A stretch of 64,000 bases of DNA, taken from Liolophura sinensis. Lineage: Eukaryota; Mollusca; Polyplacophora; Chitonida; Chitonidae. The DNA is taken from contig NC_088300.1 of the NCBI RefSeq assembly GCF_032854445.1, positions 78,345,084 to 78,409,083 of the forward strand, in the 5' to 3' direction. The position numbers and the translations under genes were made by a program. The notes below the pieces were generated by a model, which saw only the letters and a program-made list of their open reading frames with translations, did not search any database and was not told the origin of the DNA. This document shows, piece by piece, positions 13,825-48,060 of this stretch. Within the stretch, counting starts at the first letter, position 1. Each line of letters opens with the position of its first letter.

Positions 13825-14075
13825 TTACACTCTCAGTCCGTCCTGGGACTTCTCCTTAGGAGTCTGGGTGATGGCGAAGCGTAGATTCTGCTGAAGGACG
13901 TCATTCTTCACCAAGTCTGACTTCTCCAACTGCTGCCGGCGTGCTGCGCCGCGCCTGCGCACAATAGCCACAATAACAGCTACAATGATAGCCACAACAA
14001 CAACACCGACGATTGGCAGAGCAACCAGTAGGGCCATGTGACGGCGGTGATGTCTATGATGGTGTCGGTCAACAT
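13825..14075 (-). CDS. Exon 10: juxtamembrane His/Arg stretch, transmembrane helix and cytosolic tail
   Basis: Acceptor ATTATTTTTTCAG, phase 1, then 82 codons and TAA. HHHRHHRRH (432-440) is followed by a 26-residue Val/Ile/Ala helix and RRRGAARRQQ, a classic stop-transfer arrangement. The tail is charged and has no recognised motif. Confidence 0.93.
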
Positions 14076-17000
14076 CTGAAAAAATAATAAAAAACAATGT
14101 TCCAGTCATTTGATAACTTGAAATTACTGGGTCAATTAAAACGCTATCTTGTCAATTTTTTCCCGTTTGAAATTATTAACTCTCATGTAAGCGGCAACCC
14201 GACTTAAATCCCGAGTTAACATTTTTCTGCGTGCCAGAAAGAATAATAAATAAATAAATGAAGTGGGGATTTATCTTAAAAACAGGCTTAACGGTTTTAA
14301 TTCGAGGTCGGACAAAACAGACCAACAGTAAAACGGCTTGCTTCTTGCTGGCTATCTTTCTTTGAATGTCACTTAACTGAAAGAGGAATCTAACGCGACG
14401 GCTGACGGGTCCGAGTCAATTCTACTGTTCGAAAACTCGCGTGTGCGAGTCTACCAGCAAACAAGTCCCTCCACTACTGGCCAAAGATAAGAACCGCGCA
14501 ACAGACAGGGTTTATTCTCACTAGCCAACACAGATTTATCTATCGCTGGCTTAACTATGTGATGGGGCGAGATAAATCCCGAATTTACAATGTTTTTAAA
14601 ACGCCTTTTACAAATTCGCGACAATCTACATCACCAATAGGCCTACAGTAAAATTTTACGTGGTATGTGTATTGGGTTGCACTCTACTTCACACTTATGG
14701 CACCGGACTGACCCAATAGGGAAGGTTCGATTGACATTTATTTATTTATTTATTTGATTGGTGTTATACGCCGTATTTAAAAATATTTCACTTATACGAC
14801 CGTGGCCAGCATTAGGGTAGGAGGAAACCGGGCGGTGCCCGGGGAAAACCTACGACCATCCGCAGGTTGTTGGTGACCTTCCCACGTGTGGCCAGAGATG
14901 AAGCCAGCATGAGCTGGACTTGAACTCACAGCGACCGCATTAGTGAGAGGCTCCCAGGTTATTACGCTGCGCTAGCCAACTGAGCCACCGATTGACATTT
15001 CTGTGAGTACGAACTTTTTTGTCGTTGAAGATAAAAATAGTCCCCCCCCCCCCCCCCCCCGTATCTTTCCTTTCGAAACTTCTAAAGTTCAAAAACGTTC
15101 GGCTCCTCAATTGTCTCCATCGTTTGTCAACTTAAATAACTTTTTGTGAAACTTTTTTCAGACACCCATATTATAGTAAATGAGATCCCGCAATAGACAT
15201 GATACATGTCACACATGATACAGTAGGACTTTTCTTACCTTTAGGGATAGAAGAGTTCGAAAACGAAACTCCCCTAGTCTAAGAGATTGGCAAATGTTAC
15301 TACAGCGGCATCACGTCAGTCATATATGGAAATGTTAGTCGCTGCTATGGTGGCTAGTACTCACCGGCGATGTCTATCTGGTCAGTAGGGCAGGACAGAC
15401 CCATTTGATTCTCCATAAGATGGTACATCTCTGGCATGACGGAGTCTAGCAAGTCCCTAGCCTTGTACCCACAGCGCTTCTCTACAACGTCGCTGACACA
15501 GTTTGTGTAGGACTCCATGCCTCTACAATAGAAGTAACTCCACATCAAACAGTCGCAGCAGAAGTAGACAAAAGAAAGAACACATTTGTTAACAGAATGT
15601 ATTTACAGCATTTATTTCTTTCATTAGTGCTATACGCCGGCTCGAGAGTATTTCACTCATACCTCGTCCAGCATTATGGTTGGAAGAAACCGTATGTATT
15701 TAAAGTAAGAAAATCTCAAACACTCATGGAACACGAACATGTTTAATCCAGCGGGATGCAAGCAGTATCCAGTATACATTCAAACCGCACCTATACCACA
15801 AAGACAATTCTATGACAACATAGACAACATCTCCCAATTCTAGCCCTCAATGGAGACACCCTACAAAAAAGTAGTAAATACCGGCAAGCTATTTCCTGCA
15901 TTTCAAAAGACTTGTGGGTCTTCTCCATGTCAAAATCCCCTCGTGCCACTAGACCGCTGAGTGGTCCCAAGCACCCTTGAATATCCAGGGAGCGTGTATC
16001 CTTCATGAGGCAGGTACCCACCTCTTTGAACTCTACAATGTTGAACAAATTCATTTATTATACAACTATTATAATCCATTCCTTGAAAGTAAATTAACCA
16101 CGGTTGTTTGACTCACTCGTCATATATATTCCATGTGATTCTAAGAGTTTAAAGGGAAATGCACTGATAGTGGGTAAAAACAATGGTCCAGTCTGAAAAG
16201 ATATTAAGACAGGTGTTTGTCTTGCATGGCAAAATCTACCTGCCTATGTAATTAACTTATCTGAACATACCCACGTTACAGTTTTACCTCATTTATTTTA
16301 TTTCTTATTACAAACATTCATTCAGAGCTATATTCCAAACTGTATCAATTGTATGATGCAAATGGGAAAAGAGTAAAAGGTTTGGATGATCCAAATGGAC
16401 AAAGAGTAAAAGGTTTGCATGATGCAAATGGATAAAGAGTAAAAGGTTTGGATGGTGCAAATGGACAGACAGTGGTAAGGTTTACTTGCAAATTTTGCAA
16501 TTGGATAGAGAGTGGCAAGGTTTTGATGAGGCAAAAGGGACAGGGTGTTTTAAGATTTACGTGCAGATGGTGCAATTGGACACAGAGTGGTAAGGTTTAC
16601 ATGAGGCAAATGGACAGAGTGGTAAGGTTTACATGAGGCAAATTGACAGAGAGTGCTAAGGTTTAGATCATGCAAATGGACAGAGGGTGGTAAGGTTTAG
16701 ATCATGCAAATGGACAGAGGGTGGTAAGGTTTAGATCATGCAAATGGACAGAGGGTGGTAAGGTTTAGATCATGCAAATGGACAGAGGGTGGTAAGGTTT
16801 AGATCATGCAAATGGACAGAGAATGGTTTAGATGGGGCAAATGGGCAGAGATCAGATAGGCATAGAAGAAGCAAATGAAAACAGACTGTTAAAGTTTATA
16901 TGAGGCACATGGATAGAGGGGAGAAAGGTTTCGAAGAGGCAAATGGACAGAGAGTGGTAAGGTTTATATGAGACACATGAACAGAGAGCAGAAAGGTTTA

Positions 17001-20000
17001 GACGAGGGAAATGGGCAGAGTGTGGTAATGTTCAGATGAGACAAATGGACAGAGAATGGTAATGTTCAGATGAGATAAATGGACAGAGAATGGTTAAGCT
17101 TAGATTAGACAACTGGACAGAGAATGGTTAAGTTTAGATAAGTCAGACAGAGAGACCAAAGTACGGTTTATTGATACACTTGTACATCAAGGTTTAGATG
17201 ACCAGATGAATAGACAGCAGTCCAGATGTAGATTATTTTAATGTCCAAGATTTCGCTGATTAAAGTATGGAATGTGTTGCATGACAGTGATGGGCGGTTC
17301 TGCTCATACCATACCTTGTTTCTTCTCAAAACAGAGGTGGTCAAAGATTCGCTTCATTGACTCCATATACTTCCTGGCATCTGGTCCACACATGCTTTCT
17401 GCACTGACCATGCACTTTTCTGCACGCTCAAAGACCCTGTCAAATCAAACAAACCCAGTATGATATAGTCTGCCTGCCAGAAAACCACTCAACATGGCCT
17501 ATATAGATGGCCTCACTGCCAAAAGCCCCCTCCAACTCACTGCACTAGGGTAGAAAATAATAAGACTGCTACTGGCTTGACTCAATTATTGTTTGCCATA
17601 TTTTAAATGTTGGCCACCATCACCAATAAGTGAAAAAGATGACTGAGTGAAAAGATGACTGAGTGAAAAGATGATCTCGACCTTGCTCACCTTGTACACC
17701 CACATACCTCATTGTCTATCACTCAATAGTTAAGCTAAACAAGTATCAGTGCACAGCTTGGAAATCCTCTCACTGTGTTGATTTATGCATTTATCTGAGT
17801 GGTGTTTCACGCCGTACTCAAGAATATTTCACTTAGCATTACAGCCAGCATTACAGTGGGCGGTGCCCGGGGGAAACCCACCACCTTCCGCAGGTTCCTC
17901 ACTGTGTTGAGGAGATCATTTCCTGTACCACACTGGAAGGTACATGCGTCCAACGTTCATTAAATGATGTGTTTGATGGAAAAGGATCACCATGTGTTCC
18001 CATACAGAATAATTGATTTATTTGTTTATTTCACTCGTGTTTAACACCTTATCTGAGGTCAAGAATTTTTCACTTTTGTGAGAGGAGGGAACAGGAATAA
18101 ATGTCTTTGCTTCATCAGGTACCTGTCAAAACTTCACCAGATACATGACAAATCTTCACCAGATACCTGACAAAACTTCACCACACACCTGACAAAACTT
18201 CACCAGGTACCTGTCAAAACTTCACCAGGTATCTGACAAAACTTCACCAGGTATCTGACAAAACTTCATCAGATACCTGACAAAACTTCACTGGTACCTG
18301 ACAAAACTTCACCAGGTATCTGACAAAACTCCACCAGGTATCTGACAAAACTTCACCAGGTACCTGACAAAACTTCACCAGGTACCTGACAAAACTTCAC
18401 CACATACCTGACAAACCTTCATCAGGTACCTGACAAATCTTCACCAGGAAACTGAAAAAACATCATCCGGTAACTGACAAAACTTCACCAGGTACCTGAC
18501 AAAACCACGAGTTCACGCTGTGTTATTTTGTAAAATCCATAGCAAGAGTGATCAAAATATATGTTGTAGATATGTATAGCTGTACAGGACTGGCACTATA
18601 TGTTGATTTTTCTAAATTTTTACAGTACATTTTATGTTAATAAATGTCATATTCTTCTGCTGTGGCCGACTTGAAATAAACGAACAAAAATCTTAAGCTT
18701 GCTACTATGCAACAAAGTAAGTCAAATAAATATAAACAGCATACTTCATTTTCCATGTAGTGAGTCAGCTAATGACGCATGTTTTTTTTTGTATATCCCA
18801 GAGTTGAGCCCCTTTGTTTCACGGAGTTAGCGTTTGTATAGAGGTAGCCGTCAAGTAATTTACACAGTATGCCATGTATATACATAATATATAGGGTGGG
18901 AAGTCTTTACCTATTTTTCAATTACACATTATAACATAGGTACAGGCAAGTTACGACCTAGTCTATTCCATTTCATATATCAATAGTATAAAAACTTCAA
19001 CGAAAATGGCAACTTTTACAGTGGAGGGAAATTTAAACGAAAGCTGTCCAAAAGCTGACAAATCATCTCTGTACTATGAATGATACAGGCAGCAAATTAA
19101 CCCATGCACTGGGATCTTAAAATGGTGAACTAAAATATGACATAAGCTCGCTGTCATTATGCAGAGACTGCAAGAGTATAAAACCTTCAGGAAAACATAC
19201 TGGCACACTTGATCCACATCAAATCTTCCTGAGCTTGCTAGGAAGGCCATACTGGGGGATATACAGCCCGACATGGCTCTCTGTATACACTGCAAGTTTC
19301 TCTCGATATGACCGAAGTTTGGTCGGTTACCCTCCACATTACCCTCTGAGATGGGCATCTCCGGCATCTCCTGTCTGCCCTCTGTGGGGAGGATATGATG
19401 ATGTGGGCGTTTCGTAGTCACGCTGTCCACACCTGTAAACACAGGTAAATACCAAACGGTGTTTAACAAAAGCAGAGGCGACAGCCAAAGTCAACGATAG
19501 ACAATTAGGTTCTATTTAAATTTTAACAGCACCATCGTTTATCAATATCAGAAATGAAACAACACCTTCGTTCTTTAGAGTTTTAAAGAAATTATAAATC
19601 AGTCCTCAAAGTGTCACAAACAGGTGAAGACCACATGGTGTGTTTACTGCTGGCTGCATGCGCATTCCTTAAGGTTCCCTGGGGTAAGATATAATATTAC
19701 AATTAGCCAAAACTAACCACTAACTATGCCACTGGTTTATATAAAGTGTACACTTTTATAGACCACTGATGTCAACATAATTATAGTGGAGCAACTCGTG
19801 CAGATTTAAAAACCAGGGAGGTTCATACAAACCCAGCTGAGGGCACTGTAAGAAGGACAGCCCCTTGTTGAGGATGGAGAAGAAATGTGTCATGAGGGCC
19901 TCCTCGTTGCATATACTGCCCGCTTTCCTCTCGGCACAGACTTCATAGCGCTGGATCAGTCTATCAATAACAAGAAAAGCCTTCCTTCATTTGTCTAATA

Positions 20001-23000
20001 TGTTCCACAATGTACTTATGATTATATTGTTCCCGTGATCATGCTCTTGGATATGGGTGAAGTAGATGAGAACAGCCTAGGCTTGCTTCCTATGCTATAG
20101 TCAAGAACTGCCCACTCATACAAAGGCAGTGAGGTTTTCAGAAGTTGAGAAAATTGAATGGCAGGCCTGTTGTCTTAAAAACCGCCGCCAACCTAGTGAG
20201 GGGTTAACATTTTAGTTGAAGCCTTAGTTAAAGAGAACATTTTCTTTAAATATATATAACTTGAGTTGTAACTCTGTATCGTGACCTTATTCACGAAGGA
20301 AAATCTCCCTAAATATATTGCCGCTGTTACAGCAGAGGAAAAGCTCCGTAAATATAAGAAACAACAAACCTACAGTCTAAACTCTAAAAAATAGTTCTCC
20401 ACAAACGCTATTTAGATGACCTGCAAAGTTCTTCCTGCTAATTGAAAATGTATTAAACCCTGTGTACTTTGACCATTTTTTACTGTAGCATAATTACAGA
20501 AGGTCGCTTTAAACGGCTCCCACGACTTTTAAATATCACGCTACATTGAATCAATCTCGATTCACCGTACATAACGTTACTCTCTGCCCACTCATACGAA
20601 GGCAGTGAGGTTTTCAGAAGTTGAGAAAATTGAATGGCAGGCCTGTTGTCTTAAAAACCGCCGCCAACCTAGTGAGGGGTTAACATTTTAGTTGAAGCCT
20701 TAGTTAAAGAGAACATTTTCTTTAAATATATATAACTTGAGTTGTAACTCTGTATCGTGACCTTATTCACGAAGGAAAATCTCCCTAAATATATTGCCGG
20801 TGTTACAGCAGAGGAAAAGCTCCGTAAATATATTGCTTGTGTGATAGCAGAGTAAAATCTCCGTAGATATATTGCCTGTGTTATAGCTGAGGGAAATATC
20901 CATAGACATATTGCCTGTGTTATAGCTGAGGGAAATCTCCATAAACATATTGCCTGTGTTATAGTAGAGGAAAATCTCCGTAAACCGATTGCCTGTGTTA
21001 TAGAAGCGGAAAATCTACATAAACATATTGCCTGAGTTATAGCAGTCGAAGATATACCAGAATAGTATTCGCATGATTTCAACACCAAAATAAATTAGAG
21101 TACGAGATTGTTTAAATGACTTATTCGGTATCACTGAACCTTACGGTTACCGAGTGGACAGACGTACCCGCAAAGTCGCACTTGCACAGCCCGTGGGTCG
21201 CGCACTTGTGCCAGTATTGCCATCTCATTCGTCATCATGTCCCTCATACACACAGTGAACTTGACGGCGTTGTTGTCACGCAGCAGACAATTCATATACC
21301 TCTGTGTTTCTGGAGAGAAAACAACTCTGATTAGAACCTCGCAAACAGACGCCTGTTTGGTTAAGAAACAACAAACCTACAGTCTAAACTCTAAAAAATA
21401 GTTCTCCACAACACTATTTAGATGACCTGCAAAGTTCTTCCTGCTAATTGAAAATGTATTAAACCCTGTGTACTTTGACCATTTTTTACTGTAGCATAAT
21501 TACAGAAGGTCGCTTTAAACGGCTCCCACGACTTTTAAATATCACGCTACATTGAATCAATCTCGATTCACCGTACATAACGTTACTCTCCAATCAGCAA
21601 ATATTTTACACAGCGTTAAATGCATGTTCATCGCCACAAAACCACAGCGTTTCTTGGAATCAATAATCTCAGAAAAAGAAAAGATATTTACCATTTCTGG
21701 CCTCTACACACAAATAGTCCACAGCTTCAAAGGCAGCCGACACAGCCGATGTAGCTTCAGGTCCACACGTACTCATTTTAGGCATAATACACTTCCTCAC
21801 CTCCTCTAGCTGTCTGAAAACAATGGCTCAAAGTCGTAAGTAAACAAGGATATCAAACCAAAATTTACTGCTTTTTCTAGTTTCCAAATGTGTCATTCAG
21901 AAATTAGTTTGTATACGGAAAAGATCACTGAAGGTAACACTGTTATTCAATACACTGGCATGGTGTTTCATACTTTTAGACAATAATTTTAATTGTACTT
22001 AACCTGTATCTATCGGTAGTAATTACAACATGCCAGTGTTTATCTGGCATTTAGAAATTAAAGTATAATCTGACACCTGTCACAAAGAAGTTGCTTTTGA
22101 AGTAAGTATCAGTAATGCACATCTTGTCGCTGGGAAATCGCATACAGAACACTTTTTTCACTCTTTCTGAAATGTGTTTGTAGAGTAGACCACTTAATCC
22201 CAACGGCTTACAAATAATGGCTTTATTGTTACATTAATGTGGTAAAGAATTGCCTCCTCGATTGTTAGATTTGTTTCACTAAATGCTGCACTGGACGATC
22301 ACTTTAGCAAAGTTTGGAGTTGAACTTACTTGCAGGAAGTGTCCAGAGTAGGAAATTGCATCGAGGAGGTTAGACTCATGTCTGGTCCACGACGCATCAT
22401 GGCAGCGGTCATGTAAGGTGAAATACAGCTCTGTAGGCCCTGTATGTCACATCCTTCCAGACCCCAGGGCATGGGCGACATTGATTGCGGGTCTGGCTGT
22501 GGTCGCTGTGAAACCACACACCCTGTTAATGTAAAAGCATTGTTTCACCAACTTTACACCATACGTTTTCTTATTAGCATATGTAGTCTATAGACATCAT
22601 GCATGTATAACACACCCACAGGCTTTGGTATCTGTCTCGTGCTAATTATAGAGCAGCACGTTCACTACACTTAAAAATTTTTTACCAATGTCAGATTCCG
22701 CTGCGGACTACGCATGTGCATTGTGTTGAAACCTTGACAATTATACCCACAGTTAAATGATTTTGAAGTTCGACTGAGAGTTCCCTGCGGAGATACGACC
22801 TTGCCTAATCATGGGAGGAACGGCGGGACCGTATAAAAGAAAAATACCATGAAAATCAACAATATGAATAATGATCATGTATGCAATCACACCATGCGTG
22901 GTGGCCCCATGTATACAACAACGACGGTCTTGAAATCCTTTCCAATACAATTATTGCAGGGCGTACTGTCATGGTGGGTAGTTACCACAGGAAACAAGAA

Positions 23001-26000
23001 TTTATTCGTAGAACACAGCAACTAACCCAGCAACTAGCCTAACAAATCAGCACTGACTGGTTCAGTAGTATTCCACCCACATGTCAATTTATGTCCATTG
23101 CCTAACTTCGTCTGTTGTTATTTTTCTGAATGATTATAGTGCTTTAGGCCGTGTGGATGTTAAGTAGATCGTGGATGAAGAATTGTAAAAATCAAAGTGA
23201 ATAGGTGAGCACGGAAAAGGAATTCTATCGTGACTAGGTTCCCGATTCAGAAGTTACCGCTTGTAAGCAATGCCTTATTAATCGATCCCTTGTATGTCGC
23301 CTTATATGTAATATGTCGCTTGTATCCCAGGCTGAAACCGCAATTTAATGGTCACTGGGTCAGTAGCAACGGATATTGTACAGACTGATGAAACGATATT
23401 CTCACATGCAATTCGTTGTGTTCATTTTTCTCTTGTATTCAGCTTATTGTGGTAGATATAGTTTACTTACATTAGCCTTCCCACCACTCCCATGATAACA
23501 CCAAGCTGACATTAGTCTTCCCACCACTCCCATGATAACACCAAGCTGACATTAGCCTTCCCAACACTCCCATGATAACACCAAGCTGACATTAGCCTTC
23601 CCAACACTCCCATGATAACACCAAGCTGACATTAGCCTTCCCACCATTCCCATGATAACACCAAGCTGACATTAGCCTTCCCAACACTCCCATGATAACA
23701 CCAAGCTGACATCAGCCTTCCCAACACTCCCATGATAACACCAAGCTGACATTTGCCTTCCCACCACTCCCATCATAACGCCAAGCTGACATTTGCCTTC
23801 CCACCACTCCCATGATAACACCAAGCTGACATTAGCCTTCCCACCACTCCCATGATAACACCAAGCTGACATTAGCCTTCCCAACACTCCCATGATAACA
23901 CCAAGGTGACATTTGCCTTCCCACCACTCCCATGATAACACCAAGCTGACATTAGCCTTCCCACCACTCCCATGATAACACCAAGCTGACATTAGCCTTC
24001 CCAACACTCCCATGATAACACCAAGCTGACATTTGCCTTCCCAACACTCCCATGATAACACCAAGCTGACATTAGCCTTCCCAACACTCCCATGATAACA
24101 CCAAGCTGACATTAGCCTTCCCAACACTCCCATGATAACACCAAGCTGACATTAGCCTTCCCAACACTCCCATGATAACACCAAGCTGACATTAGCCTTC
24201 CCACCACTCCCATGATAACACCAAGCTGACATTAGCCTTCCCAACACTCCCATGATAACACCAAGCTGACATACATTAATGTGCCCACCAGAGATACCCT
24301 CCTAAATATCTCAACAGATAACATTTAAAAACAAATGGGACTTTGACATATTTACAAGCTACTCTTTGATAAGCTTTAATCCTGAGCAAGACACGTCAGC
24401 TCCACCGACGTTTTACCAGACTTTTGCCGTGTTATTTATCGCGATAAAACACGACCAGGTCACACGCTTCTAAACAGGAAAAGCGAACAAACTCTAACTT
24501 TCGACTAACAACCCTTCTGGCGGCGAATTAAAGGACTTCGAAAGCTGGCTTCAGAGAATCATACATTCCTAAAATGTAACGTTAACTGATGTCACACTTC
24601 ATCCGTCAAATAAGCAACCAGTCAATACAGGGCCTATGAACCAATCCAGTGAACTGAATTTCTCTTTGATAGGTCTGAACAATGACGGAAAAATAACAGT
24701 CCAACTACATGTATGCTTCTAATGAAATGATTCAGGAAAGTTCTCTCATTTAACGAAGCAAAACATACGCCAGACAAATCCGAGCTGTATACATTGTAGT
24801 TGTCATGCATGTATATTAAAACAGTCAGTGGCGCGAGGTTTGCACTCTGAGTATGGAAATCTCTTTCGCACCTGTTGTATACATTAGTACTGCCTGCACA
24901 TGTTAATGTCGGTTCTATTGTGGACCAGAGCTTTGACATACGCAAATGTCTGTATCCTTTATTCATACATGTACGTTACTGTTATGTACCTTCATTGGCC
25001 CTATGTTTTATTCAGGTGACAGTACTCGACACTTAACTGCCTCTTTAAATATGTAATGACATTGATGACGATGGTCAACAAAAGCTAGAATGCAACTTGA
25101 TCTGCTAACCTTTGACGTTGGTGCATAAGTCTGCGGAAGCTACACAGCAACTTGATCTGCTAACCTTTGACGTTGGTGCGTAAGTCTGCGGAAGCTACAC
25201 AGCAACTTGATCTGCTAACCCTTGACGTTGGTGCGTTAGTCTGCGGAAGCTACACAGCAACTTGATCTGCCAACCCATGTAAATCATGTATCTTTCATCT
25301 TTAACAATGTCTGTTATTTGATTGGGGTTATCAGCGCTTTCAGTAGTATTTCGGTTTCTCCAGTGTCGTCAGGCATCATGACCATCCAAATGTTTGGTAT
25401 CACTTCCATATCGCGGTGAGTGGTATGCCCCCACGGGCGCACCATGACAGAGTGCAGACATCCAGCATGTACATTACACCAGCTTGATCAGTTTTCACAC
25501 TTCCATCTGCTAATTGCCTAGCGAATAAGCCAAAAGTGCTACACTTGAATAAACAGTACTTTCACTTGACCCGGTTAATTGCTATCAATGCTTTTGTGCT
25601 TTGTTGTTTCAGATTCATTCGGTGACAGTTTCGTTTTGGGTTATAACATTAAATAAGTTCACTTCAGCTCTTCGAGATTTTCCCGCCTTGATGGTTTTGT
25701 TTGTTTGATTAGGGTGACCTCTTGCAGAAGGCTGGATCCAAAGCTGACATATTTTTAGTGCTACCTCACTGGAACGACATTCCGAAGACACCCAGTCACA
25801 TTATAGTGAAACTCAGTCGACCTGCACTTCCTCTAATTCCCCTAATACGCGAGGTAGTGCCAAAATTGCCCGTCTTTAAGTCTTAGGTATGACTGTCCGT
25901 TACGTGTAACCATTTGCCAGCTATCACACTGTCGCCGTTGCTCTAGTTTTTCTCTCTATGCTGTATATGAATCTATCGTTAACGCGACAGACGCTCAAAC

Positions 26001-28444
26001 TTCTACGCCACCGCAGCCAGTCCGCTTTGATGGGTAGGCCTATATTTTGAGACTGGTGGCCGCGTGGCTATGGGTACGTTTTAAAACATACGTTTTAAAC
26101 ATTAAAACCAGCAACAGATAAGCCTACACTACTGTGACTCTTGCAACATAGTGTCAGTATATATATCTTGCCGGAAACAGATAGGTTACGATGGGCGCTC
26201 CAGTTTCCCTCGTAGGCCTACAGCTAAACAGTCTTAACATTCAGTTCTTCAATTCACCCTCAGATGCATTTATAGAGATTCGCTCAAGTGCAAAGAGGAA
26301 TGGCCACGCATACATTGTATAAAGCACATACCGAAAACAGGTATAGATGTGGATGAAAATCAGTGTACCACCTAGTCATGTTTACCGATGGAAAAAACGG
26401 ACTGCCCTGAAAAAACTACTGTCCTTAGCCAGGTAGCTGGCATACCTCCTAACTTACACCAGCAGCCGAACCAGCGAGAGTCGGAATTGTGCACGCGCGC
26501 TAAGATAGAGTATAATCGGTTGCAGTGAGACTTATATACAGAAAAGAATAAACCAACGAGAACTCTAAACCTTGCTATTTAAACATTAATGTAGTAGAAC
26601 TGACACAAGTGCTATATACATGTTTGTAATATGTCAGTCCATTACGGAGGCTTTCAAGCAGTTTAATAGGTGCCATGAGCATTAGCCTACGTGCATATAT
26701 TATAGCTTCCTTTGTGTATATGTAGGCTACAGATCAAGGACTTCAAACCGATAATGAACTAGATAAAATTAGAAAAACAGGGGAAATCAGCAAAACAAAA
26801 TTAGCCATAGCAGTCTGCATCAATGTCTGCGTGGTCTTAACTCACAGGCTGATTCGGGCGCCCCATGCAGTAAGCTGTAAATAACACACGGCACAACACG
26901 TTTAAGTTCCCTGTACACTGAGTCTGTAAACTATCACAAGTAAACAATCACAACATAATCTTGTCCGTCGAAAGTAAATGAACTCCTAACATGTCACGTA
27001 TCTGCTACAATGCCTGTAAAGAGCTTCAAAACAAGGTTCACTGCAACATACAGACTGGTATAGTGAGAGTCTACATTAAATCCATGTTATGTGATCATTA
27101 GATTCGTGTTTCATGGCTGTTGTAATATAGCCACTAAGGCACATATTCTCACAAAATTCCCTTAAGGCACAAGGAACTATCTGTGTATAGCTTACAGTTG
27201 TCTCCCGATGTCTCCACTGCTAACGATAACTGAACTGAGGATCGTACATAGATCACTGAGTCAACAGGAACCAGAGGTCCAAAACCCGGTCTCTTTGGCC
27301 AAAAGGCCGCTGCCTTCATCGACAGCGACGCCTTAGACAACCGAGCCAGTTGGGGTTTCAGTGGTCCGACACTCAGTTTCACTGGCTTCCATCGAAAGCA
27401 ATGCCTTACGTAACAGAACCAGCGGGTATCAGTGGTCCGACACACGGTCTCAATTGGCCAAAAGGATGTCGGCTCCATCGACAGCAACGCTTTAGACAAC
27501 TGAGCCAGCAAGGACCCTTCAGGTGTATATAAAATCATTCTTTATGACTGAACAACCATCAGCCATCATTAATTGGAGACTTGAAATGCGCGTTGCGCTG
27601 TGGTTTTAAGTCAGAAGATTTGTTAGGTATCCCAGCAGTAGTTTGCGCGAAGTAATATACATAGACATATAAGGATTGGTATACTACGTACAATGTAACC
27701 TAAACCCAGGACCAATATCTTTACTTAACGTTCATACAGAGCTGATGTTATGTTGTGTCATGGTGTAGTCAAATCAGTAATACTGCTCTGCCTTACATCT
27801 GGTTTTATGTCCAGGTTCCGGGAATAGAGTGAGTGAGTGCTTGGGGTTTAACGTCGAATCCGGGAATAGAAAATTATGTAGAAAATTTGTTTGCTTAACG
27901 GTTGTTTCCTGCTGAAAAAAGTGTCATAAAATCTTTTCCAACTTTTCTTTTTCACGAGAAAATAAAACTAATCTCAGAAAAGAACTAATCGAACCGTTTA
28001 CACGTGCGTCAACACTGTACCCCGCCTTTACACCCTCACTTATTGGCCTCACATCTTAAAATAGCTCAATGACGACACGTTAAGATGGCCACTGTATTTC
28101 ACCACACAGAAATAGATAAAACATTGCTTTATCAACGACAGTTCACGAGTCCAAGCCCCTGAAATGGTCAGCCATTTACTTCTACATAGATATTATGTTT
28201 AAAACCAGTACAAATCTTATCAACACATATCAAACAGCGACGCAGACAACCCGAGAAATAAGCCGTTAACACGCATGTAAACAAAAGCACTTCGGAACAT
28301 GTGAACAGCGATTACATCGGCTCCAAATATCGCTGTCAGGAAGAAAACCACCCTACTGATGATACGATTAAAATAGACAACAAATACAACGAAAATGAAG
28401 CTAAACTTACCGACGGCCACAGCCAAGATGGCTAAGGTAAACAT
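13825..28444 (-). CDS. Ten-exon gene for a predicted 510-aa type I membrane protein with four tandem six-Cys modules
   Basis: Joining ten minus-strand exons at consensus GT/AG sites keeps one open frame of 510 codons, with reading phase matching at all nine introns. Predicted layout: signal peptide about 1-16 (hydrophobic LAILAVAVG core, likely cut after VVS); module A 33-116, B 117-206, C 207-324, D 325-427; His/Arg-rich stretch 432-440; membrane helix about 441-466; RRR stop-transfer 467-469; 44-residue cytosolic tail. Each module has exactly six cysteines, three per exon, 24 in all. Modules A and C share spacings (C-x7-C, then C-x7-C-x18-C with CGP). B and D share C-x12-C and C-x8-C. Intron phases alternate 1,2,1,2 throughout. 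Not recognised as a named family; nematode secreted Cys-rich DUF19-type domains are a loose comparison only. Function unknown; probably a cell-surface or secretory-pathway protein. There is no RNA support here, so the start and any 5' UTR exon are inferred. Confidence 0.88.
14740..14988 (-). mobile_element. Full-length tRNA-derived SINE in intron 9, 12-bp target duplication
   Basis: Read on the minus strand, the 5' end carries an A box TGGCTCAGTTGG (14976-14987) and a B box GAGTTCAAGTCC (14916-14927). A conserved body and an AAAT-repeat 3' tail follow. Direct repeats CGATTGACATTT flank it at 14728-14739 and 14989-15000. It is the most complete copy of the family here and can serve as its reference. 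Confidence 0.92.
15042..15060. repeat. Poly-C tract, 19 bases
   Basis: An uninterrupted run of C in intron 9 beside the SINE. Length calls in such runs are error-prone. Confidence 0.9.
15365..15522 (-). CDS. Exon 9: module D second half
   Basis: Acceptor TTCTATTGTAG, donor G|GTGAGT, 158 bp, phase 2 to 1. Residues 376-427 with Cys 383, 392 and 419; C-x8-C as in exon 5. Confidence 0.92.
15612..15705 (-). mobile_element. SINE 3' fragment, diverged
   Basis: Matches the 3' part of the SINE at 14740: TATACGCCGGCTCGAGAGTA, then CCAGCATTATGGTTGGAAGA. Old copy in intron 8; no target duplication seen. Confidence 0.7.
15882..16032 (-). CDS. Exon 8: module D first half
   Basis: Acceptor TTCAACATTGTAG, donor CG|GTATTT, 151 bp, phase 1 to 2. 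Residues 326-374 with Cys 332, 345 and 374; C-x12-C as in exon 4. Confidence 0.9.
16340..17160. repeat. About 34-bp minisatellite in intron 7
   Basis: GGTAAGGTTTAGATCATGCA plus AATGGACAGAGGGT is the cleanest unit (16660-16820). It becomes more diverged toward both ends, with AAATGGACAGAG as the most stable core. Confidence 0.92.
17315..17436 (-). CDS. Exon 7: module C second half
   Basis: Acceptor TTTGATTTGACAG, donor G|GTATGG, 122 bp, phase 2 to 1. Residues 285-324 with Cys 292, 300 and 319. KC-x7-CGP and D-x-LC match exon 3. Confidence 0.93.
17782..17897 (-). mobile_element. SINE 3' fragment in intron 6, 13-bp target duplication
   Basis: Contains CACGCCGTACTCAAGAATAT and GGTGCCCGGGGGAAACCCAC of the SINE body. 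CTCACTGTGTTGA repeats directly at 17769-17781 and 17898-17910. Confidence 0.85.
18015..18092 (-). mobile_element. Degenerate SINE 3' fragment
   Basis: TTTATTTGTTTATTT tail, then TAACACCTTATCTGAGGTCA and AGAATTTTTCACTT, resembling the SINE 3' end at lower similarity. Confidence 0.5.
18115..18508. repeat. 22-bp minisatellite in intron 6, about 18 copies
   Basis: Unit ACCTGACAAAACTTCACCAG plus GT, with some copies carrying ATCTG or CATCAG. Confidence 0.93.
19201..19432 (-). CDS. Exon 6: inter-module linker and module C first half
   Basis: Acceptor CTGTGTTTACAG, donor CCA|GTATGT, 232 bp, phase 1 to 2. Residues 208-283. The first 45 or so are a polar linker with RPHHH and acidic/Met-Pro stretches. 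Cys 255, 263 and 283 then align with exon 2, including CISP. Confidence 0.92.
19833..19960 (-). CDS. Exon 5: module B second half
   Basis: Acceptor TTGTTATTGATAG, donor G|GTTTGT (weaker), 128 bp, phase 2 to 1. Residues 165-206 with Cys 172, 181 and 203. Confidence 0.9.
20110..20586. repeat. Local duplication, copy 1 (lacks exon 4)
   Basis: Starts CCCACTCATACAAAGGCAGT and ends TACATAACGTTACTCTCT. It matches 20587-21590 on both sides but jumps directly from GCTCCGTAAATATA to AGAAACAACAAACC. It therefore lacks the 39-bp repeats and the whole of exon 4 present in copy 2. Confidence 0.88.
20775..21062. repeat. 39-bp minisatellite in intron 4, about 7 copies
   Basis: Core AATCTCCGTAAATATATTGC followed by CTGTGTTATAGCAGAGG. 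The 13-residue repeat read on the minus strand is a by-product of the period. Confidence 0.9.
21168..21309 (-). CDS. Exon 4: module B first half
   Basis: Strong acceptor TTTTCTCTCCAG, donor GG|GTACGT, 142 bp, phase 1 to 2. Residues 118-163 with Cys 124, 137 and 163. It lies inside a locally duplicated stretch; the other copy of that stretch lacks the exon. Confidence 0.92.
21692..21813 (-). CDS. Exon 3: module A second half
   Basis: Acceptor TTGTTTTCAG, donor G|GTAAAT, 122 bp, phase 2 to 1. Residues 77-116 with Cys 84, 92 and 111 and a CGP motif. It has the same length and Cys spacing as exon 7. Confidence 0.92.
22330..22522 (-). CDS. Exon 2: end of signal peptide and module A first half
   Basis: The acceptor TTTTACATTAACAG gives phase 1, matching exon 1. 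The donor is CAA|GTAAGT (phase 2). Codes residues 13-75, with Cys 36, 44 and 75; Cys 75 is the last full codon. An alternative acceptor 17 bases downstream (…TTTCACAG) would be phase 0 and would not fit exon 1. Confidence 0.88.
23473..24272. repeat. 40-bp minisatellite in intron 1, 20 copies
   Basis: Unit ACATTAGCCTTCCCAACACT plus CCCATGATAACACCAAGCTG, very homogeneous, with A/C variation at CCAA/CCAC. 800 bp gives exactly 20 units. Confidence 0.97.
25091..25275. repeat. 55-bp tandem repeat, about 3.4 copies
   Basis: GCAACTTGATCTGCTAACCT followed by TTGACGTTGGTGCGTAAGTC and TGCGGAAGCTACACA, repeated with few differences. Confidence 0.93.
27270..27515 (-). repeat. Cluster of three tRNA-like units (possible tRNA-derived SINE heads)
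   Basis: On the minus strand, CTGGCTCAGTTGTCTAAAGC (from 27508) and CTGGCTCGGTTGTCTAAGGC (from 27350) resemble tRNA 5' ends with an A box. A diverged third unit sits between them. GTGTCGGACCAC downstream of two of them is a weak B-box candidate. Units are about 70-90 bp apart. Confidence 0.45.
27831..27860 (+). repeat. Dispersed GTGAGTGCTTGGGGTTTAAC motif
   Basis: The same short sequence, in either orientation, also occurs near 9470 and 51830 and is the monomer core of the array at 34.9-35.3 kb. I recall it as very common in mollusc genomes. Confidence 0.6.
28411..28444 (-). CDS. Exon 1: start codon and signal-peptide core
   Basis: ATG at 28444-28442 with A at -3, coding MFTLAILAVAV plus the first base of Gly. 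The donor G|GTAAGT follows (phase 1). The frame upstream has no other nearby ATG. The 5.9-kb intron 1 separates it from exon 2, so this is the least certain link. The phase match and the continuous signal peptide (…VGCVVS) across the junction support it. Confidence 0.78.
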
Positions 28445-40410: not shown

Positions 40411-40469
40411 TATCACTGCCAGAGAATCATTGCACGCGACCAAAGGGGTGCCTGTGGCGGCCATGCAGC

Positions 40470-42585
40470 GGATATGGCAAACTTTCATTCCTGGAGAATC
40501 TATACTCTTCACCATAGGTTAAGTTGAAAAATAGACCTTACAGAGGATATGGCAAACTTTCATTCCGGGAGAATCTATACTCTTCACCACAGGTTAAGTT
40601 GAAAAATAGACCTTACAGAGGATATGGCAAACCTTGTCATTCCGGGAGAATCTATACTCTTCAACCATAGGTTAAGTTGAAAAATAGACCTTACAGAGGA
40701 TATGGCAAACCTTGTCATTCCGGGAGAATCTATACTCTTCACCATAGGTTAAGTTGAAAAATAGACCTTACAGAGGATATGGCAAACTTTCATTCCGGGA
40801 GAATCCATACTCTTCAACCATAGGTTAAGTTGAAAAATAGACCTTACAGAGGATATGGCAAACTTTCATTCCGGGAGAATCCATACTCTTCACCATAGGT
40901 TAAGTTGAAAAATAGACCTTACAGAGGATATGGCAAACTTTCATTCCGGGAGAATCTATACTCTTCACCATAGGTTAAGTTGAAAAATAGACCTTACAGA
41001 GGATATGGCAAATCTTGTCATTCCGGGAGAATCTATACTCTTCACCATAGGTTAAGTTGAAAAATAGACCCTAGAGGATATGGCAAACTTTCATTCCTGG
41101 AGAATCTATACTCTTCACCATAGGTTAAGTTGAAAAATAGACCTTACAGAGGATATGGCAAACTTTCATTCCGGGAGAATCTATACTCTTCACCATAGGT
41201 TAAGTTGAAAAATAGACCCTACAGAGGATATGGCAAACCTTGTCATTCCGGGAGAATCTATACTCTTCACCATAGGTTAAGTTGAAAAATAGACCTTACA
41301 GAGGATATGGCAAACCTTGACATTTCGAGAGAATCTATACTCTTCACCATAGGTTAAGTTGAAAAATAGACCCTACAGAGGATATGGCAAACTTTCATTC
41401 CGGGAGAATCCATACTCTTTAACCATAGGTTAAGTTGAAAAATAGACCTTACAGAGGATATGGCAAACTTTCATTCCTGGAGAATCCATACTCTTCACCA
41501 TAGGTTAAGTTGAAAAATAGACCTTACAGAGGATATGGCAAACCTTGTCATTCCGGGAGAATCTATGCTCTTCACCATAGGTTAAGTTGAAAAATAGACC
41601 CTACAGAGGATATGGCAAACTTTCATTCTGGGAGAATCCATACTCTTCACCATAGGTTACGTTGAAAAATAGACCTTACAGAGGATATGGCAAACCTTGT
41701 CATTCCGGGAGAATCTATACTCTTCAACCATAGGTTAAGTTGAAAAATAGACCCTACAGAAGATATGGCAAACTTTCATTCCTGGAGAATCCATACTCTT
41801 CACCATAGGTTATGTTGAAAAATAGACCCTACAGAGGACATGGCAAACCTTGTCATTCTGGGAGAATCTATACTCTTCACCATAGGTTAAGTTGAAAAAT
41901 AGACCTTACAGAGGATATGGCAAACTTTCATTCCAGGAGAATCTATACTCTTCACCATAGGTTAAGTTGAAAAATAGACCCTACAGAGGATATGGCAAAT
42001 CTTGTCATTCCGGGAGAATCCATACTCTTCACCATAGGTTAAGTTGAAAAATAGACCTTACAGAGGATATGGCAAACCTTGTCATTCCGGGAGAATCTAT
42101 ACTCTTCACCATAGGTTAAGTTGAAAAATAGACCTTACAGAGGATATGGCAAACCTTGTCATTCCGGGAGAATCTATACTCTTCACCATAGGTTAAGTTG
42201 AAAAATAGACCTTACAGAGGATATGGCAAACCTTGTCATTCCGGGAGAATCTATGCTCTTCACCATAGGTTAAGTTGAAAAATAGACCCTACAGAGGATA
42301 TGGCAAACTTTCATTCCGGGAGAATCTATACTCTTCACCATAGGTTAAGTTGAAAAATAGACCCTACAGAGGATATGGCAAACCTTGTCATTCCGGGAGA
42401 ATCTATACTCTTCACCATAGGTTAAGTTGAAAAATAGACCCTACAGAGGATATGGCAAACCTTGTCATTCCGGGAGAATCTATACTCTTCACCATAGGTT
42501 AAGTTGAAAAATAGACCCTACAGAGGATATGGAAAACTTTGTCACTCCTGGAGAATCTATACTCTTCACCATAGGTTAACTATGG
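40470..42585. repeat. Satellite block 2, 75-77-bp monomer, about 28 copies
   Basis: Monomer ACAGAGGATATGGCAAACTT followed by TCATTCCGGGAGAATCTATA, CTCTTCACCATAGGTTAAGT and TGAAAAATAGACCTT. Longer units have CCTTGTCATT in place of CTTTCATT. Confidence 0.97.
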
Positions 42586-42732: not shown

Positions 42733-45700
42733 TTAATTCTTCAGAATATGCACTCAGACTGAGGTGTGACAAGAGAATGAGCCCTATAGACAATGTAGCA
42801 AACCCATTATTCCTTCAGAGTATGCACTCAGACTGAGGTGTGACAAGAGAGTGAGCCCTACAGACGATGTGGCAAACCCTGTTATTCCTTCAGAATATGC
42901 AGTCAGACTGAGGTGTGACAAGAGAGTGAGCCCTACAGACGATTTGGCAAACCCTGTTATTCCTTCAGAATATGCACTCAGACTGAGGTGTGACAAGAGA
43001 GTGAGCCCTACAGACGATTTGGCAAACCCTGTTATTCCTTCAGAATATGCACTCAGACTGAGGTGTGACAAGAGAATGAGCCCTATAGACAATGTAGCAA
43101 ACCCATTATTCCTTCAGAATATGCACTCAGACTGAGGTGTGACAAGAGAATGAGCCCTACAGACGATTTGGCAAACCCTGTTATTCCTTCAGAATATGCA
43201 CTCAGACTGAGGTGTGACAAGAGAGTGAGCCCTACAGACAATGTAGCAAACCCTGTTATTCCTTCAGAATATGCACTCAGACTGAGGTGTGACAAGAGAG
43301 TGAGCCCTACAGACGATGTGGCAAACCCTGTTATTCCTTCAGAATATGCACTCAGACTGAGGTGTGACAAGAGAATGAGCCCTACAGACGATGTGGCAAA
43401 CCCTGTTATTCCTTCAGAATATGCACTCAGACTGAGGTGTGACAAGAGAGTGAGCCCTACAGACGATGTGGCAAACCCTGTTATTCCTTCAGAATATGCA
43501 GTCAGACTGAGGTGTGACTAGATATTGGGCCCTATAGACGATGTGGCAAACCCTGTTATTCCTTCAGAATATGCACTCAGACTGAGGTGTGACAAGAGAG
43601 TGAGCCCTACAGACGATTTGGCAAACCCTGTTATTCCTTCAGAATATGCACTCAGACTGAGGTGTGACAAGAGAATGAGCCCTACAGACGATGTGGCAAA
43701 CCCTGTTATTCCTTCAGAATATGCACTCAGACTGAGGTGTGACAAGAGAGTGAGCCCTACAGACGATGTGGCAAACCCTGTTATTCCTTCAGAATATGCA
43801 GTCAGACTGAGGTGTGACTAGATATTGGGCCCTATAGACGATGTGGCAAACCCTGTTATTCCTTCGGAATATGCACTCAGACTGAGGTGTGACAAGAGAG
43901 TGAGCCCTACAGACGATTTGGCAAACCCTGTTATTCCTTCAGAATATGCACTCAGACTGAGGTGTGACAAGAGAGTGAGCCCTACAGACGATTTGGCAAA
44001 CCCTGTTATTCCTTCAGAATATGCAGTCAGACTGAGGTGTGACAAGAGAGTGAGCCCTACAGACGATGTATTAAACCCTGTTATTCCTTCAGAATATGCA
44101 CTCAGACTGAGGTGTGACAAGAGAATGAGCCCTATAGACAATGTAGCAAACCCGTTATTCCTTCAGAATATGCACTCAGACTGAGGTGTGACAAGAGAGT
44201 GAGCCCTACAGACGATTTGGCAAACCCTGTTATTCCTTCAGAATATGCACTCAGACTGAGGTGTGACAAGAGAATGAGCCCTATAGACAATGTAGCAAAC
44301 CCTGTTATTCCTTCAGAATATGCACTCAGACTGAGGTGTGACAAGAGAGTGAGCCCTACAGACGATTTGGCAAACCCTGTTATTCCTTCAGAATATGCAC
44401 TCAGACTGAGGTGTGACAAGAGAGTGAGCCCTACAGACGATTTGGCAAACCCTGTTATTCCTTCAGAATATGCACTCAGACTGAGGTGTGACAAGAGAAT
44501 GAGCCCTATAGACAATGTAGCGAACCCATTATTCCTTCAGAATATGCACTCAGACTGAGGTGTGACAAGAGAATGAGCCCTACAGACGATTTGGCAAACC
44601 CTGTTATTCCTTCAGAATATGCACTCAGACTGAGGTGTGACAAGAGAGTGAGCCCTACAGACAATGTAGCAAACCCTGTTATTCCTTCAGAATATGCACT
44701 CAGACTGAGGTGTGACAAGAGAGTGAGCCCTACAGACGATGTGGCAAACCCTGTTATTCCTTCAGAATATGCACTCAGACTGAGGTGTGACAAGAGAATG
44801 AGCCCTACAGACGATGTGGCAAACCCTGTTATTCCTTCAGAATATGCACTCAGACTGAGGTGTGACAAGAGAGTGAGCCCTACAGACGATGTGGCAAACC
44901 CTGTTATTCCTTCAGAATATGCAGTCAGACTGAGGTGTGACTAGATATTGGGCCCTATAGACGATGTGGCAAACCCTGTTATTCCTTCAGAATATGCACT
45001 CAGACTGAGGTGTGACAAGAGAGTGAGCCCTACAGACGATTTGGCAAACCCTGTTATTCCTTCAGAATATGCACTCAGACTGAGGTGTGACAAGAGAATG
45101 AGCCCTACAGACGATGTGGCAAACCCTGTTATTCCTTCAGAATATGCACTCAGACTGAGGTGTGACAAGAGAGTGAGCCCTACAGACGATGTGGCAAACC
45201 CTGTTATTCCTTCAGAATATGCAGTCAGACTGAGGTGTGACTAGATATTGGGCCCTATAGACGATGTGGCAAACCCTGTTATTCCTTCGGAATATGCACT
45301 CAGACTGAGGTGTGACAAGAGAGTGAGCCCTACAGACGATTTGGCAAACCCTGTTATTCCTTCAGAATATGCACTCAGACTGAGGTGTGACAAGAGAGTG
45401 AGCCCTACAGACGATTTGGCAAACCCTGTTATTCCTTCAGAATATGCAGTCAGACTGAGGTGTGACAAGAGAGTGAGCCCTACAGACGATGTATTAAACC
45501 CTGTTATTCCTTCAGAATATGCACTCAGACTGAGGTGTGACAAGAGAATGAGCCCTATAGACAATGTAGCAAACCCGTTATTCCTTCAGAATATGCACTC
45601 AGACTGAGGTGTGACAAGAGAGTGAGCCCTACAGACGATTTGGCAAACCCTGTTATTCCTTCAGAATATGCACTCAGACTGAGGTGTGACAAGAGAGTGA

Positions 45701-48060
45701 GCCCTACAGACAATGTAGCAAACCCTGTTATTCCTTCAGAATATGCACTCAGACTGAGGTGTGACAAGAGAGTGAGCCCTACAGACGATGTGGCAAACCC
45801 TGTTATTCCTTCAGAATATGCACTCAGACTGAGGTGTGACAAGAGAATGAGCCCTACAGACGATGTGGCAAACCCTGTTATTCCTTCAGAATATGCACTC
45901 AGACTGAGGTGTGACAAGAGAGTGAGCCCTACAGACGATGTGGCAAACCCTGTTATTCCTTCAGAATATGCAGTCAGACTGAGGTGTGACTAGATATTGG
46001 GCCCTATAGACGATGTGGCAAACCCTGTTATTCCTTCAGAATATGCACTCAGACTGAGGTGTGACAAGAGAGTGAGCCCTACAGACGATTTGGCAAACCC
46101 TGTTATTCCTTCAGAATATGCACTCAGACTGAGGTGTGACAAGAGAGTGAGCCCTACAGACGATTTGGCAAACCCTGTTATTCCTTCAGAATATGCACTC
46201 AGACTGAGGTGTGACAAGAGAGTGAGCCCTACAGACGATGTATCAAACCCTGTTATTCCTTCAGAATATGCACTCAGACTGAGGTGTGACAAGAGAATGA
46301 GCCCTATAGACAATGTAGCAAACCCGTTATTCCTTCAGAACATGCACTCAGACTGAGGTGTGACAAGAGAATGAGCCCTACAGACGATTTGGCAAACCCT
46401 GTTATTCCTTCAGAATATGCACTCAGACTGAGGTGTGACAAGAGAGTGAGCCCTACAGACGATGTAGCAAACCCTGTTATTCCTTCAGAACATGCACTCA
46501 GACTGAGGTGTGACAAGAGAATGAGCCCTACAGACGATGTGGCAAACCCTGTTATTCCTTCAGAATATGCACTCAGACTGAGGTGTGACAAGAGAGTGAG
46601 CCCTACAGACGATGTGGCAAACCCTGTTATTCCTTCAGAATATGCACTCAGACTGAGGTGTGACAAGAGAGTGAGCCCTACAGACGATGTGGCAAACCCT
46701 GTTATTCCTTCAGAATATGCAGTCAGACTGAGGCGTGACTAGATATTGGGCCCTATAGACGATGTGGCAAACCCTGTTATTCCTTCAGAATATGCACTCA
46801 GACTGAGGTGTGACAAGAGAATGAGCCCTACAGACGATGTGGCAAACCCTGTTATTCCTTCAGAATATGCACTCAGACTGAGGTGTGACAAGAGAGTGAG
46901 CCCTACAGACGATGTGGCAAACCCTGTTATTCCTTCAGAATATTCAGTCAGACTGAGGTGTGACTAGATATTGGGCCCTATAGACGATGTGGCAAACCCT
47001 GTTATTCCTTCAGAATATGCACTCAGACTGAGGTGTGACAAGAGAGTGAGCCCTACAGACGATTTGGCAAACCCTGTTATTCCTTCAGAATATGCACTCA
47101 GACTGAGGTGTGACAAGAGAGTGAGCCCTACAGACGATTTGGCAAACCCTGTTATTCCTTCAGAATATGCACTCAGACTGAGGTGTGACAAGAGAATGAG
47201 CCCTATAGACAATGTAGCAAACCCGTTATTCCTTCAGAATATGCACTCAGACTGAGGTGTGACAAGAGAGTGAGTCCTACAGACAATGTAGCAAACCCTG
47301 TTATTCCTTCAGAATATGCACTCAGACTGAGGTGTGACAAGAGAGTGAGCCCTACAGACGATGTGGCAAACCCTGTTATTCCTTCAGAATATGCACTCAG
47401 ACTGAGGTGTGACAAGAGAATGAGCCCTACAGACGATGTGGCAAACCCTGTTATTCCTTCAGAATATGCACTCAGACTGAGGTGTGACAAGAGAGTGAGC
47501 CCTACAGACGATTTGGCAAACCCTGTTATTCCTTCAGAATATGCAGTCAGACTGAGGTGTGACTAGATATTGGGCCCTATAGACGATGTGGCAAACCCTG
47601 TTATTCCTTCAGAATATGCACTCAGACTGAGGTGTGACAAGAGAGTGAGCCCTACAGACGATTTGGCAAACCCTGTTATTCCTTCAGAATATGCACTCAG
47701 ACTGAGGTGTGACAAGAGAGTGAGCCCTACAGACGATTTGGCAAACCCTGTTATTCCTTCAGAATATGCAGTCAGACTGAGGTGTGACTAGATATTGGGC
47801 CCTGCAGACGATGTGGCAAACCCTGAAATTCCCCCAAAATCCATGCACTCTGTCAGAGGGCTCATAAAGAGTGGGAGATACAGAGAATATGACGAACTCC
47901 CATTATTTAACGGGAATATATGCATTCGACCAGATAGGAAAAACTTATCATTTCTCAAGAATGTACACTCGAACATACGGGAACTCGAAGAATAAAACCT
48001 TTTACAGAGGATAGGGTGAGCTTTGTGATCAATCCACGCATTCGATTGTAACAGAAAGTT
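42733..48060. repeat. Satellite block 3, 75-bp monomer, about 68 copies with higher-order structure
   Basis: Monomer ACAGACGATGTGGCAAACCC followed by TGTTATTCCTTCAGAATATG, CACTCAGACTGAGGTGTGAC and AAGAGAGTGAGCCCT. Variant monomers (CTAGATATTGGGCCCTAT; a 74-bp form with one base missing in AAACCCGTTATT) recur at fixed spacing. After about 47815 the units decay. The 25-residue open frames on both strands come from a stop-free 75-bp period. Confidence 0.97.

What the first reader, a model, noticed from the sequence alone, without database searches (positions are those of the whole stretch)
13825..28444. Unnamed modular membrane protein: four six-cysteine modules, each encoded by an exon pair
Seen in sequence: ten minus-strand exons join in phase to 510 codons. 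Eight internal exons each carry exactly three cysteines, and intron phases alternate 1,2,1,2 without exception. Cysteine spacings show A~C (x7; x7, x18, CGP) and B~D (x12; x8). Inference: an ancestral two-exon, six-Cys unit duplicated to AB, then AB duplicated to ABCD. The protein has a signal peptide, one membrane helix and a small basic tail, so it may be a cell-surface receptor or adhesion-type protein. I do not recognise the family.
Basis: partly seen in the sequence, partly recalled or inferred. Interest (0 to 1): 0.85.

Follow-up and report, generated by a model that had tools for sequence, protein, structure and literature searches.

The report
Tandem CPG4/DUF19-module membrane protein
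An animal gene encodes a cell-surface protein whose outside part is built from repeated cysteine-rich blocks, each block split between two exons; the blocks belong to a known but poorly understood domain family, and a sister gene in the same genome has twice as many of them and a matching inner tail.

Summary
The gene model holds: ten minus-strand exons, GT-AG introns, phases 1,2,1,2..., 510 aa. One slip: exon 2 has four cysteines, the extra one in the putative signal peptide. The family is not unknown: Pfam CPG4 matches above cut-off (41.1 against 32.7 bits). DUF19 matches only below cut-off, but where it matches (3 of 6 units) one model spans a whole four-exon, 12-cysteine AB pair. A paralogue (P2) 6.35 Mb away has four AB pairs, 16 module exons in the same phases, and a similar tail with LVKND[VI]LQQN. 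One P2 module lacks both Cys2 and Cys5, suggesting that they form a disulfide. Boldest reading: the module is a distant cousin of the three-helix, BMP-binding N-domain of repulsive guidance molecules. Spacing matches, and RGM chains were the top five PDB hits of the 12-module profile (best E 0.027), but four sub-profiles found nothing. Most likely a single-pass surface receptor or adhesion protein; ligand unknown.

The parts
28411..28444 (-). exon 1: start codon and first part of putative signal peptide
   Evidence: GT donor, phase 1; no signal-peptide program run
22330..22522 (-). exon 2: end of signal peptide (C13) and module A, Cys1-Cys3
   Evidence: phases 1 to 2; 4 Cys in all
21692..21813 (-). 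exon 3: module A, Cys4-Cys6 (CGPEA)
   Evidence: phases 2 to 1
21168..21309 (-). exon 4: module B, Cys1-Cys3
   Evidence: phases 1 to 2
19833..19960 (-). exon 5: module B, Cys4-Cys6
   Evidence: phases 2 to 1; a first trial had placed its start 9 bases too far in
19201..19432 (-). exon 6: most of the 51-residue stretch between Cys203 and Cys255, then module C, Cys1-Cys3
   Evidence: phases 1 to 2
17315..17436 (-). exon 7: module C, Cys4-Cys6 (CGPDA)
   Evidence: phases 2 to 1; same length (122) as exon 3
15882..16032 (-). exon 8: module D, Cys1-Cys3
   Evidence: phases 1 to 2; AlphaFold of the single-exon peptide poor (mean pLDDT 52.6)
15365..15522 (-). exon 9: module D, Cys4-Cys6 (CGYKA)
   Evidence: phases 2 to 1; AlphaFold of the single-exon peptide: helices 2-17 and 19-39, mean pLDDT 76.3
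13825..14075 (-). exon 10: His-rich juxtamembrane stretch, transmembrane helix, 44-residue basic tail with LVKNDVLQQN, stop
   Evidence: found by the P2 membrane-plus-tail peptide (E 9.7e-5)

Best explanation
A type I single-pass plasma-membrane protein. Its ectodomain is two 12-Cys, DUF19-length units in tandem, each unit a pair of homologous six-Cys, probably helical modules (A-type then B-type). Each module is encoded by two exons cut by a phase-2 intron right behind Cys3, and modules are joined by phase-1 introns, so that whole modules or units (phase 1 in, phase 1 out) can be copied without breaking the frame. That is how the gene family grew: two units here, four in the paralogue. Working model: the disulfide-bonded ectodomain binds an extracellular or cell-surface partner, and the conserved cytoplasmic motif LVKND[VI]LQQN recruits an intracellular partner, so it acts as a surface receptor or adhesion protein. 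Shown: anatomy, family, paralogue, tail similarity. Inferred: topology, surface location, ligand binding, signalling. The ligand is not known.
For: Pfam CPG4 2.6e-10, 41.1 bits over the 32.7 cut-off, two stretches; paralogue P2 CPG4 1.5e-11, 45.1 bits, four stretches. DUF19 spans a unit in 3 of 6 units: CD 13-160 of 176 residues, profile 19-153/157; P2 U1 and U4, profile 31-156 and 32-153. P2: 16 module exons, phases 1,2 throughout, three Cys in 14 of 16. One membrane helix in each protein. Tails: 32 aligned columns, 14 identical, 0 of 2000 shuffles as good; the P2 membrane-plus-tail peptide finds itself and P1 only in the 609-Mb genome at E<=10. A~B homology: and hhalign of six A against six B modules, P-value 0.00096 but probability only 22%.
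Against: No expression, localisation or ligand data. DUF19 is below its cut-off in every scan whose score is shown and was not listed for unit AB nor for P2 units U2 and U3. CPG4 on AB alone (30.1 bits) or CD alone (28.7) is below the whole-protein cut-off. Ectodomain units are only 15.0-19.3% identical between the two genes, so a shared ligand cannot be assumed. I could name no known partner of the tail motif. For 5 of 12 modules the A/B similarity is not beyond Cys-preserving shuffles at the 5% level.
Confidence: 0.6

Rival explanations
1. RGM-like BMP co-receptor: each six-Cys module is a divergent relative of the RGM N-domain (three helices, three disulfides), and the tandem array binds TGF-beta/BMP-type ligands at the cell surface.
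For: The RGM N-domain of this same genome is C x4 C x27 C x8 C x7 C x21 C; P2 module U1A is C x4 C x27 C x8 C x7 C x18 C. The 12-module profile against all PDB chains gave six hits at E<=10, the first five all RGM chains (E 0.027-0.58); in the two alignments printed Cys3-Cys5 are in register. RGM_N sub-threshold in P2 units U2 and U3 (0.027, 0.011). Cys-preserving shuffles as good as the real RGM domain: 5 and 20 of 1000 with the B profile, 12 and 27 with the all-module profile (genome RGM and RGMB). RGMB N-domain is a bundle of three helices with three disulfides that binds GDF5 (PMC7354924, passages).
Against: Profiles of B only, A only, P2 only and P1 only gave no PDB hit at E<=10. hhalign of B or A modules against RGM N-domains: probability 1.9% and 7.5%. 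With the A profile 152 and 170 of 1000 Cys-preserving shuffles did as well. RGM N-domains list neither CPG4 nor DUF19 in return; RGM_N is not listed for P1. The genome's RGM N-domain lies in one open frame, without the phase-2 intron. The exon 9 hairpin model did not find RGM in Foldseek.
Confidence: 0.15
2. A membrane-bound chondroitin proteoglycan, like the nematode protein (recalled) after which the CPG4 model is named: the ectodomain is a core carrying glycosaminoglycan chains.
For: Family name and Pfam match. The acidic linker of a partial third copy contains DDSG.
Against: The window protein has only three Ser-Gly pairs (261, 274, 350), all inside Cys-rich modules and none with an acidic residue among the six before it; P2 has two, also in modules, one with a Glu three before it.
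Confidence: 0.1
3. A passive structural, storage or shield surface protein of the disulfide-rich kind, with no signalling.
For: DUF19 is listed among large families of putative secreted C. elegans proteins: 51 genes, 14 of them up-regulated on infection, 140-220 aa (PMC3534327, one table passage).
Against: The tail (14 of 32 aligned columns identical) is better conserved between the paralogues than the ectodomain units (15.0-19.3%), which points to an intracellular partner.
Confidence: 0.15

Closest known systems
Pfam PF15481 CPG4 (chondroitin proteoglycan 4)
   Same: P1 (window) and P2 both pass the curated cut-off. Reckoned from match ends, not from a printed alignment, Cys3 of an A-type (P1A) and of a B-type module (P2U1B) fall at about profile positions 27-31 of the same model
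   Different: Tandem units with a transmembrane helix and a conserved tail; no acidic Ser-Gly sites in P1
Pfam PF01579 DUF19
   Same: One model length (157) spans one 12-Cys unit in 3 of 6 units
   Different: Below the cut-off; C. elegans examples listed at 140-220 aa among putative secreted proteins (PMC3534327, table passage)
Pfam PF07165 DUF1397
   Same: Weak matches in 3 of 12 modules, best 4.3e-5; where the place is shown they lie on A-type modules (P1A, P2U3A)
   Different: Below cut-off where the score is shown; only about the last third of the model matches
RGM N-terminal domain (PF06535)
   Same: Six-Cys spacing with C3 x8 C4 x7 C5; helical hairpin after Cys3 predicted for exon 9
   Different: Below cut-off; in this genome's RGM the domain is in one open frame
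Neuritin NRN1 (PF15056)
   Same: Spacing as recalled; weak hit to module C (0.19 and 0.12)
   Different: Below cut-off; single domain (recalled)

Membership tests
Pfam CPG4 domain (PF15481) | score over the curated cut-off of 32.7 bits for the whole protein | tested here: met
   41.1 bits; paralogue 45.1 bits; single units score 30.1 and 28.7
Chondroitin proteoglycan (functional class) | acidic Ser-Gly chain attachment sites (feature recalled) | tested here: not met
   three SG pairs, none with an acidic residue among the six before it
Chondroitin proteoglycan (functional class) | carries chondroitin chains | not testable with these tools
   needs biochemistry
DUF19 (PF01579) | score over 23.2 bits | tested here: not met
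   19.9, 20.0 and 16.7, 21.7 and 20.7 in the paralogue's units
DUF19 (PF01579) | one domain of about 157 positions spanning the 12-Cys unit | tested here: inconclusive
   spanned in CD 19-153/157, U1 31-156 and U4 32-153; not listed for AB, U2 and U3
RGM | RGM_N over 24.2 bits | tested here: not met
   not listed for P1; 13.1 to 16.4 bits in P2
RGM | C-terminal RGM domain | tested here: not met
   no such match in the Pfam scan of the 510-aa protein
RGM N-domain fold | three-helix bundle with three disulfides in a whole module | not tested
   whole modules were not folded; single-exon models only
Neuritin NRN1 (PF15056) | score over 27 bits | tested here: not met
   12.4 bits, 13 bits

The most novel reading that the evidence does not exclude
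CPG4, DUF19, DUF1397, the RGM N-domain and neuritin are one superfamily of six-Cys, three-helix binding modules; this animal lineage has built from it a family of multi-module transmembrane receptors (the ligand need not be a BMP) by exon-pair copying, with a conserved cytoplasmic motif. The paired loss of Cys2 and Cys5 in one paralogue module predicts a disulfide that a structure can check.
Probability: 0.3. Interest if true: 0.7.

Novelty: new variant of a known kind. Interest (0 to 1): 0.45.

Why it matters
It gives a little-studied domain family (CPG4/DUF19) a clean modular grammar: a two-exon six-Cys module, paired into a 12-Cys unit, copied two to four times, on a membrane anchor with a conserved tail. 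That makes membrane-receptor function testable for a family whose named member is (as recalled) a nematode proteoglycan. If the RGM link holds, several orphan families would join a fold known to bind BMPs.

Tried and rejected
Family searches of the genome with CPG4, DUF19, RGM_N, NRN1 and DUF1397. The CPG4 and DUF19 searches did not list even the window's own gene, because exons split the domain, so they cannot count paralogues. Two weak places from them (C5:19.07 Mb, C9:3.15 Mb) held no module exons in the 10 kb fetched around each (L014, L015).

Whole-protein BLAST of the genome is also too weak to exclude more copies: (P1, E<=1) missed all 16 module exons of P2 and found it by the tail alone; (P2, E<=10) found one P3 exon at E 0.096 and of P1 only the membrane/tail exon (0.0039) and exon 9 (3.24).

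Protein against PDB by phmmer: only chance hits, the best on the membrane helix (leukotriene C4 synthase, E 0.23). Foldseek with the exon 9 hairpin: five hits, best E 3.0, none RGM. Exon 8 peptide model too poor to use.

TMEM154, MRF_C2 and other sub-threshold Pfam hits: treated as chance or as membrane-helix composition; not tested further.

Paper searches for CPG4 and DUF1397 returned mostly papers on DNA methylation and other meanings of CpG4. No title or abstract listed or 60 described this architecture; that says no more than these seven searches.

A first trial placed exon 5 with a non-AG acceptor; corrected. One search stopped on an option clash before its shuffles; rerun.

Full report
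Observation. Reading the minus strand and joining exons in a script gives ten exons with GT-AG introns and exit phases 1,2,1,2,1,2,1,2,1, 510 residues and a stop. There are 25 cysteines, one (C13) in the putative signal peptide and 24 in four modules. Module spacings are 7-30-8-7-18 (A), 12-25-8-8-21 (B), 7-19-8-7-18 (C), 12-28-8-8-26 (D). In random sequences of the same neighbouring-base make-up the exon motifs are rare (14 and 114 ends in 1.6 Mb, both strands), with the reservation that the motifs were written after seeing the exons.

Family. Pfam CPG4 matches above cut-off. Scanned as parts, AB alone scores 30.1 and CD 28.7 bits, below that cut-off. Of 12 single modules, 6 match CPG4, 3 DUF1397, 3 DUF19 and 1 RGM_N at E<=1. 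DUF19, below its cut-off wherever the score is shown, spans a whole unit in CD and in P2 units U1 and U4, but is not listed for AB, U2 and U3. I read this as: the six-Cys module is half of a DUF19-length domain, and the protein has two such domains.

Paralogue. A weak hit of the tail (E 0.0017) led to G000:C6:71993108-72004382, plus strand. I traced 16 module exons and a membrane exon; the signal exon was not traced. Phases are 1,2 without exception; 14 of 16 module exons hold exactly three cysteines. The other two belong to one module (U4A), in which, placed by spacing, Cys2 is Q and Cys5 is A; their joint loss suggests that they form a disulfide (inference from one case). The spacing after Cys3 is 8 in 12 of 12 modules, and between Cys4 and Cys5 it is 7 in six of six A-type and 8 in six of six B-type modules (U4A by position). 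Pfam gives CPG4 45.1 bits. A partial third copy (P3) begins about 13 kb behind P2: two first-type exons, a last module split over two frames and a probable membrane exon, the last two picked out by eye. More divergent copies cannot be excluded, since BLAST with P1 missed all module exons of P2.

History. Each module scored with the profile of the opposite type, number of 1000 Cys-preserving shuffles that do as well: 0 for P2U1B, P1A and P1C; 3, 6 and 7 for P2U2B, P2U1A and P2U4B; 24, 54 and 106 for P1D, P1B and P2U3B; 259, 323 and 503 for P2U2A, P2U4A and P2U3A. hhalign of six A against six B modules: P-value 0.00096, probability 22%. The 12-module tree separates A from B (79/82; no starred branch, long branches warned). 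The unit tree joins P2 units 2 and 3 (99/96) and, weakly, P1 unit 1 with P2 unit 1 (70/82). Reading: AB arose first; two units possibly predate the split of the genes; P2 later doubled a middle unit.

Membrane and tail. One hydrophobic segment, a 44-residue tail of net charge +6, a His/Arg run before the membrane, one N-glycosylation motif (N116), three SG pairs without an acidic residue in the six before. The tails align over 32 columns with 14 identical, core RRQQLEKSDLVKNDVLQQN against RSHSLDKKELVKNDILQQN, 0 of 2000 shuffles as good, while ectodomain units are 15.0-19.3% identical between the genes. I take this as evidence for an intracellular partner.

RGM lead. For: the same spacing class as the genome's own RGM N-domain; the top five of six PDB hits of the 12-module profile are RGM chains (E 0.027-0.58); 5 to 27 of 1000 Cys-preserving shuffles as good for the all-module and B profiles. 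Against: 152 and 170 of 1000 for the A profile; four sub-profiles find nothing; low hhalign probabilities; no reciprocal Pfam match; no shared intron; no fold match from a one-exon hairpin. The paper passages say that RGMB's N-domain is a three-helix bundle with three disulfides, helix 3 at the core of the GDF5 contact (PMC7354924, passages), and that TWSG1, RGMs and type 1 receptors insert a helix into the same groove of BMP ligands (PMC11167000, passages). I keep it as a lead, not a membership.

Structure. Exon 9's peptide, aligned with the three other second-type window exons, gives two helices (2-17, 19-39), mean pLDDT 76.3; exon 8's is poor, 52.6. Helical modules are therefore likely, not shown.

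Molluscan DUF19 proteins are in print at least by name (oyster K1PB63, PMC10058639, one table passage). Whether the window is molluscan was not tested.

Noticed in passing
G000:C6:71993108-72004382 (L006, L005): Paralogue with four 12-Cys units (16 module exons) and a homologous membrane/tail exon.
   Followed up: yes
G000:C6 about 72017765-72021577 (L016): Third, partial copy behind the paralogue, with an acidic Asp/Ser-rich linker (DDSG) and a last module split over two frames; probably a relic.
   Followed up: partly
G000:C8:49075191-49075412 (L009): The genome's own RGM gene, N-domain in one open frame.
   Followed up: partly
window 50288-51469 +: Open frame of 393 codons with Tc1-type transposase domains (DDE_3, HTH_Tnp_Tc3_2).
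   Followed up: partly
window 61080-62009 + and 649-957 +: Reverse transcriptase (RVT_1) match, and a weak Exo_endo_phos match below cut-off: probably retroelement remains.
   Followed up: partly
window 23469-24272, 40466-42579, 42739-47832, 56694-58004: Large tandem arrays (periods 40, 77, 75, 81); the first lies inside intron 1 of the gene.
   Followed up: no
window about 21590-21370 and 20590-20360: A stretch of intron 3 is repeated in intron 4, on either side of exon 4 (seen by eye).
   Followed up: no
window exon 10, residues 431-440: Histidine/arginine run RHHHRHHRRH before the membrane helix; no such run in the paralogue's membrane exon.
   Followed up: no
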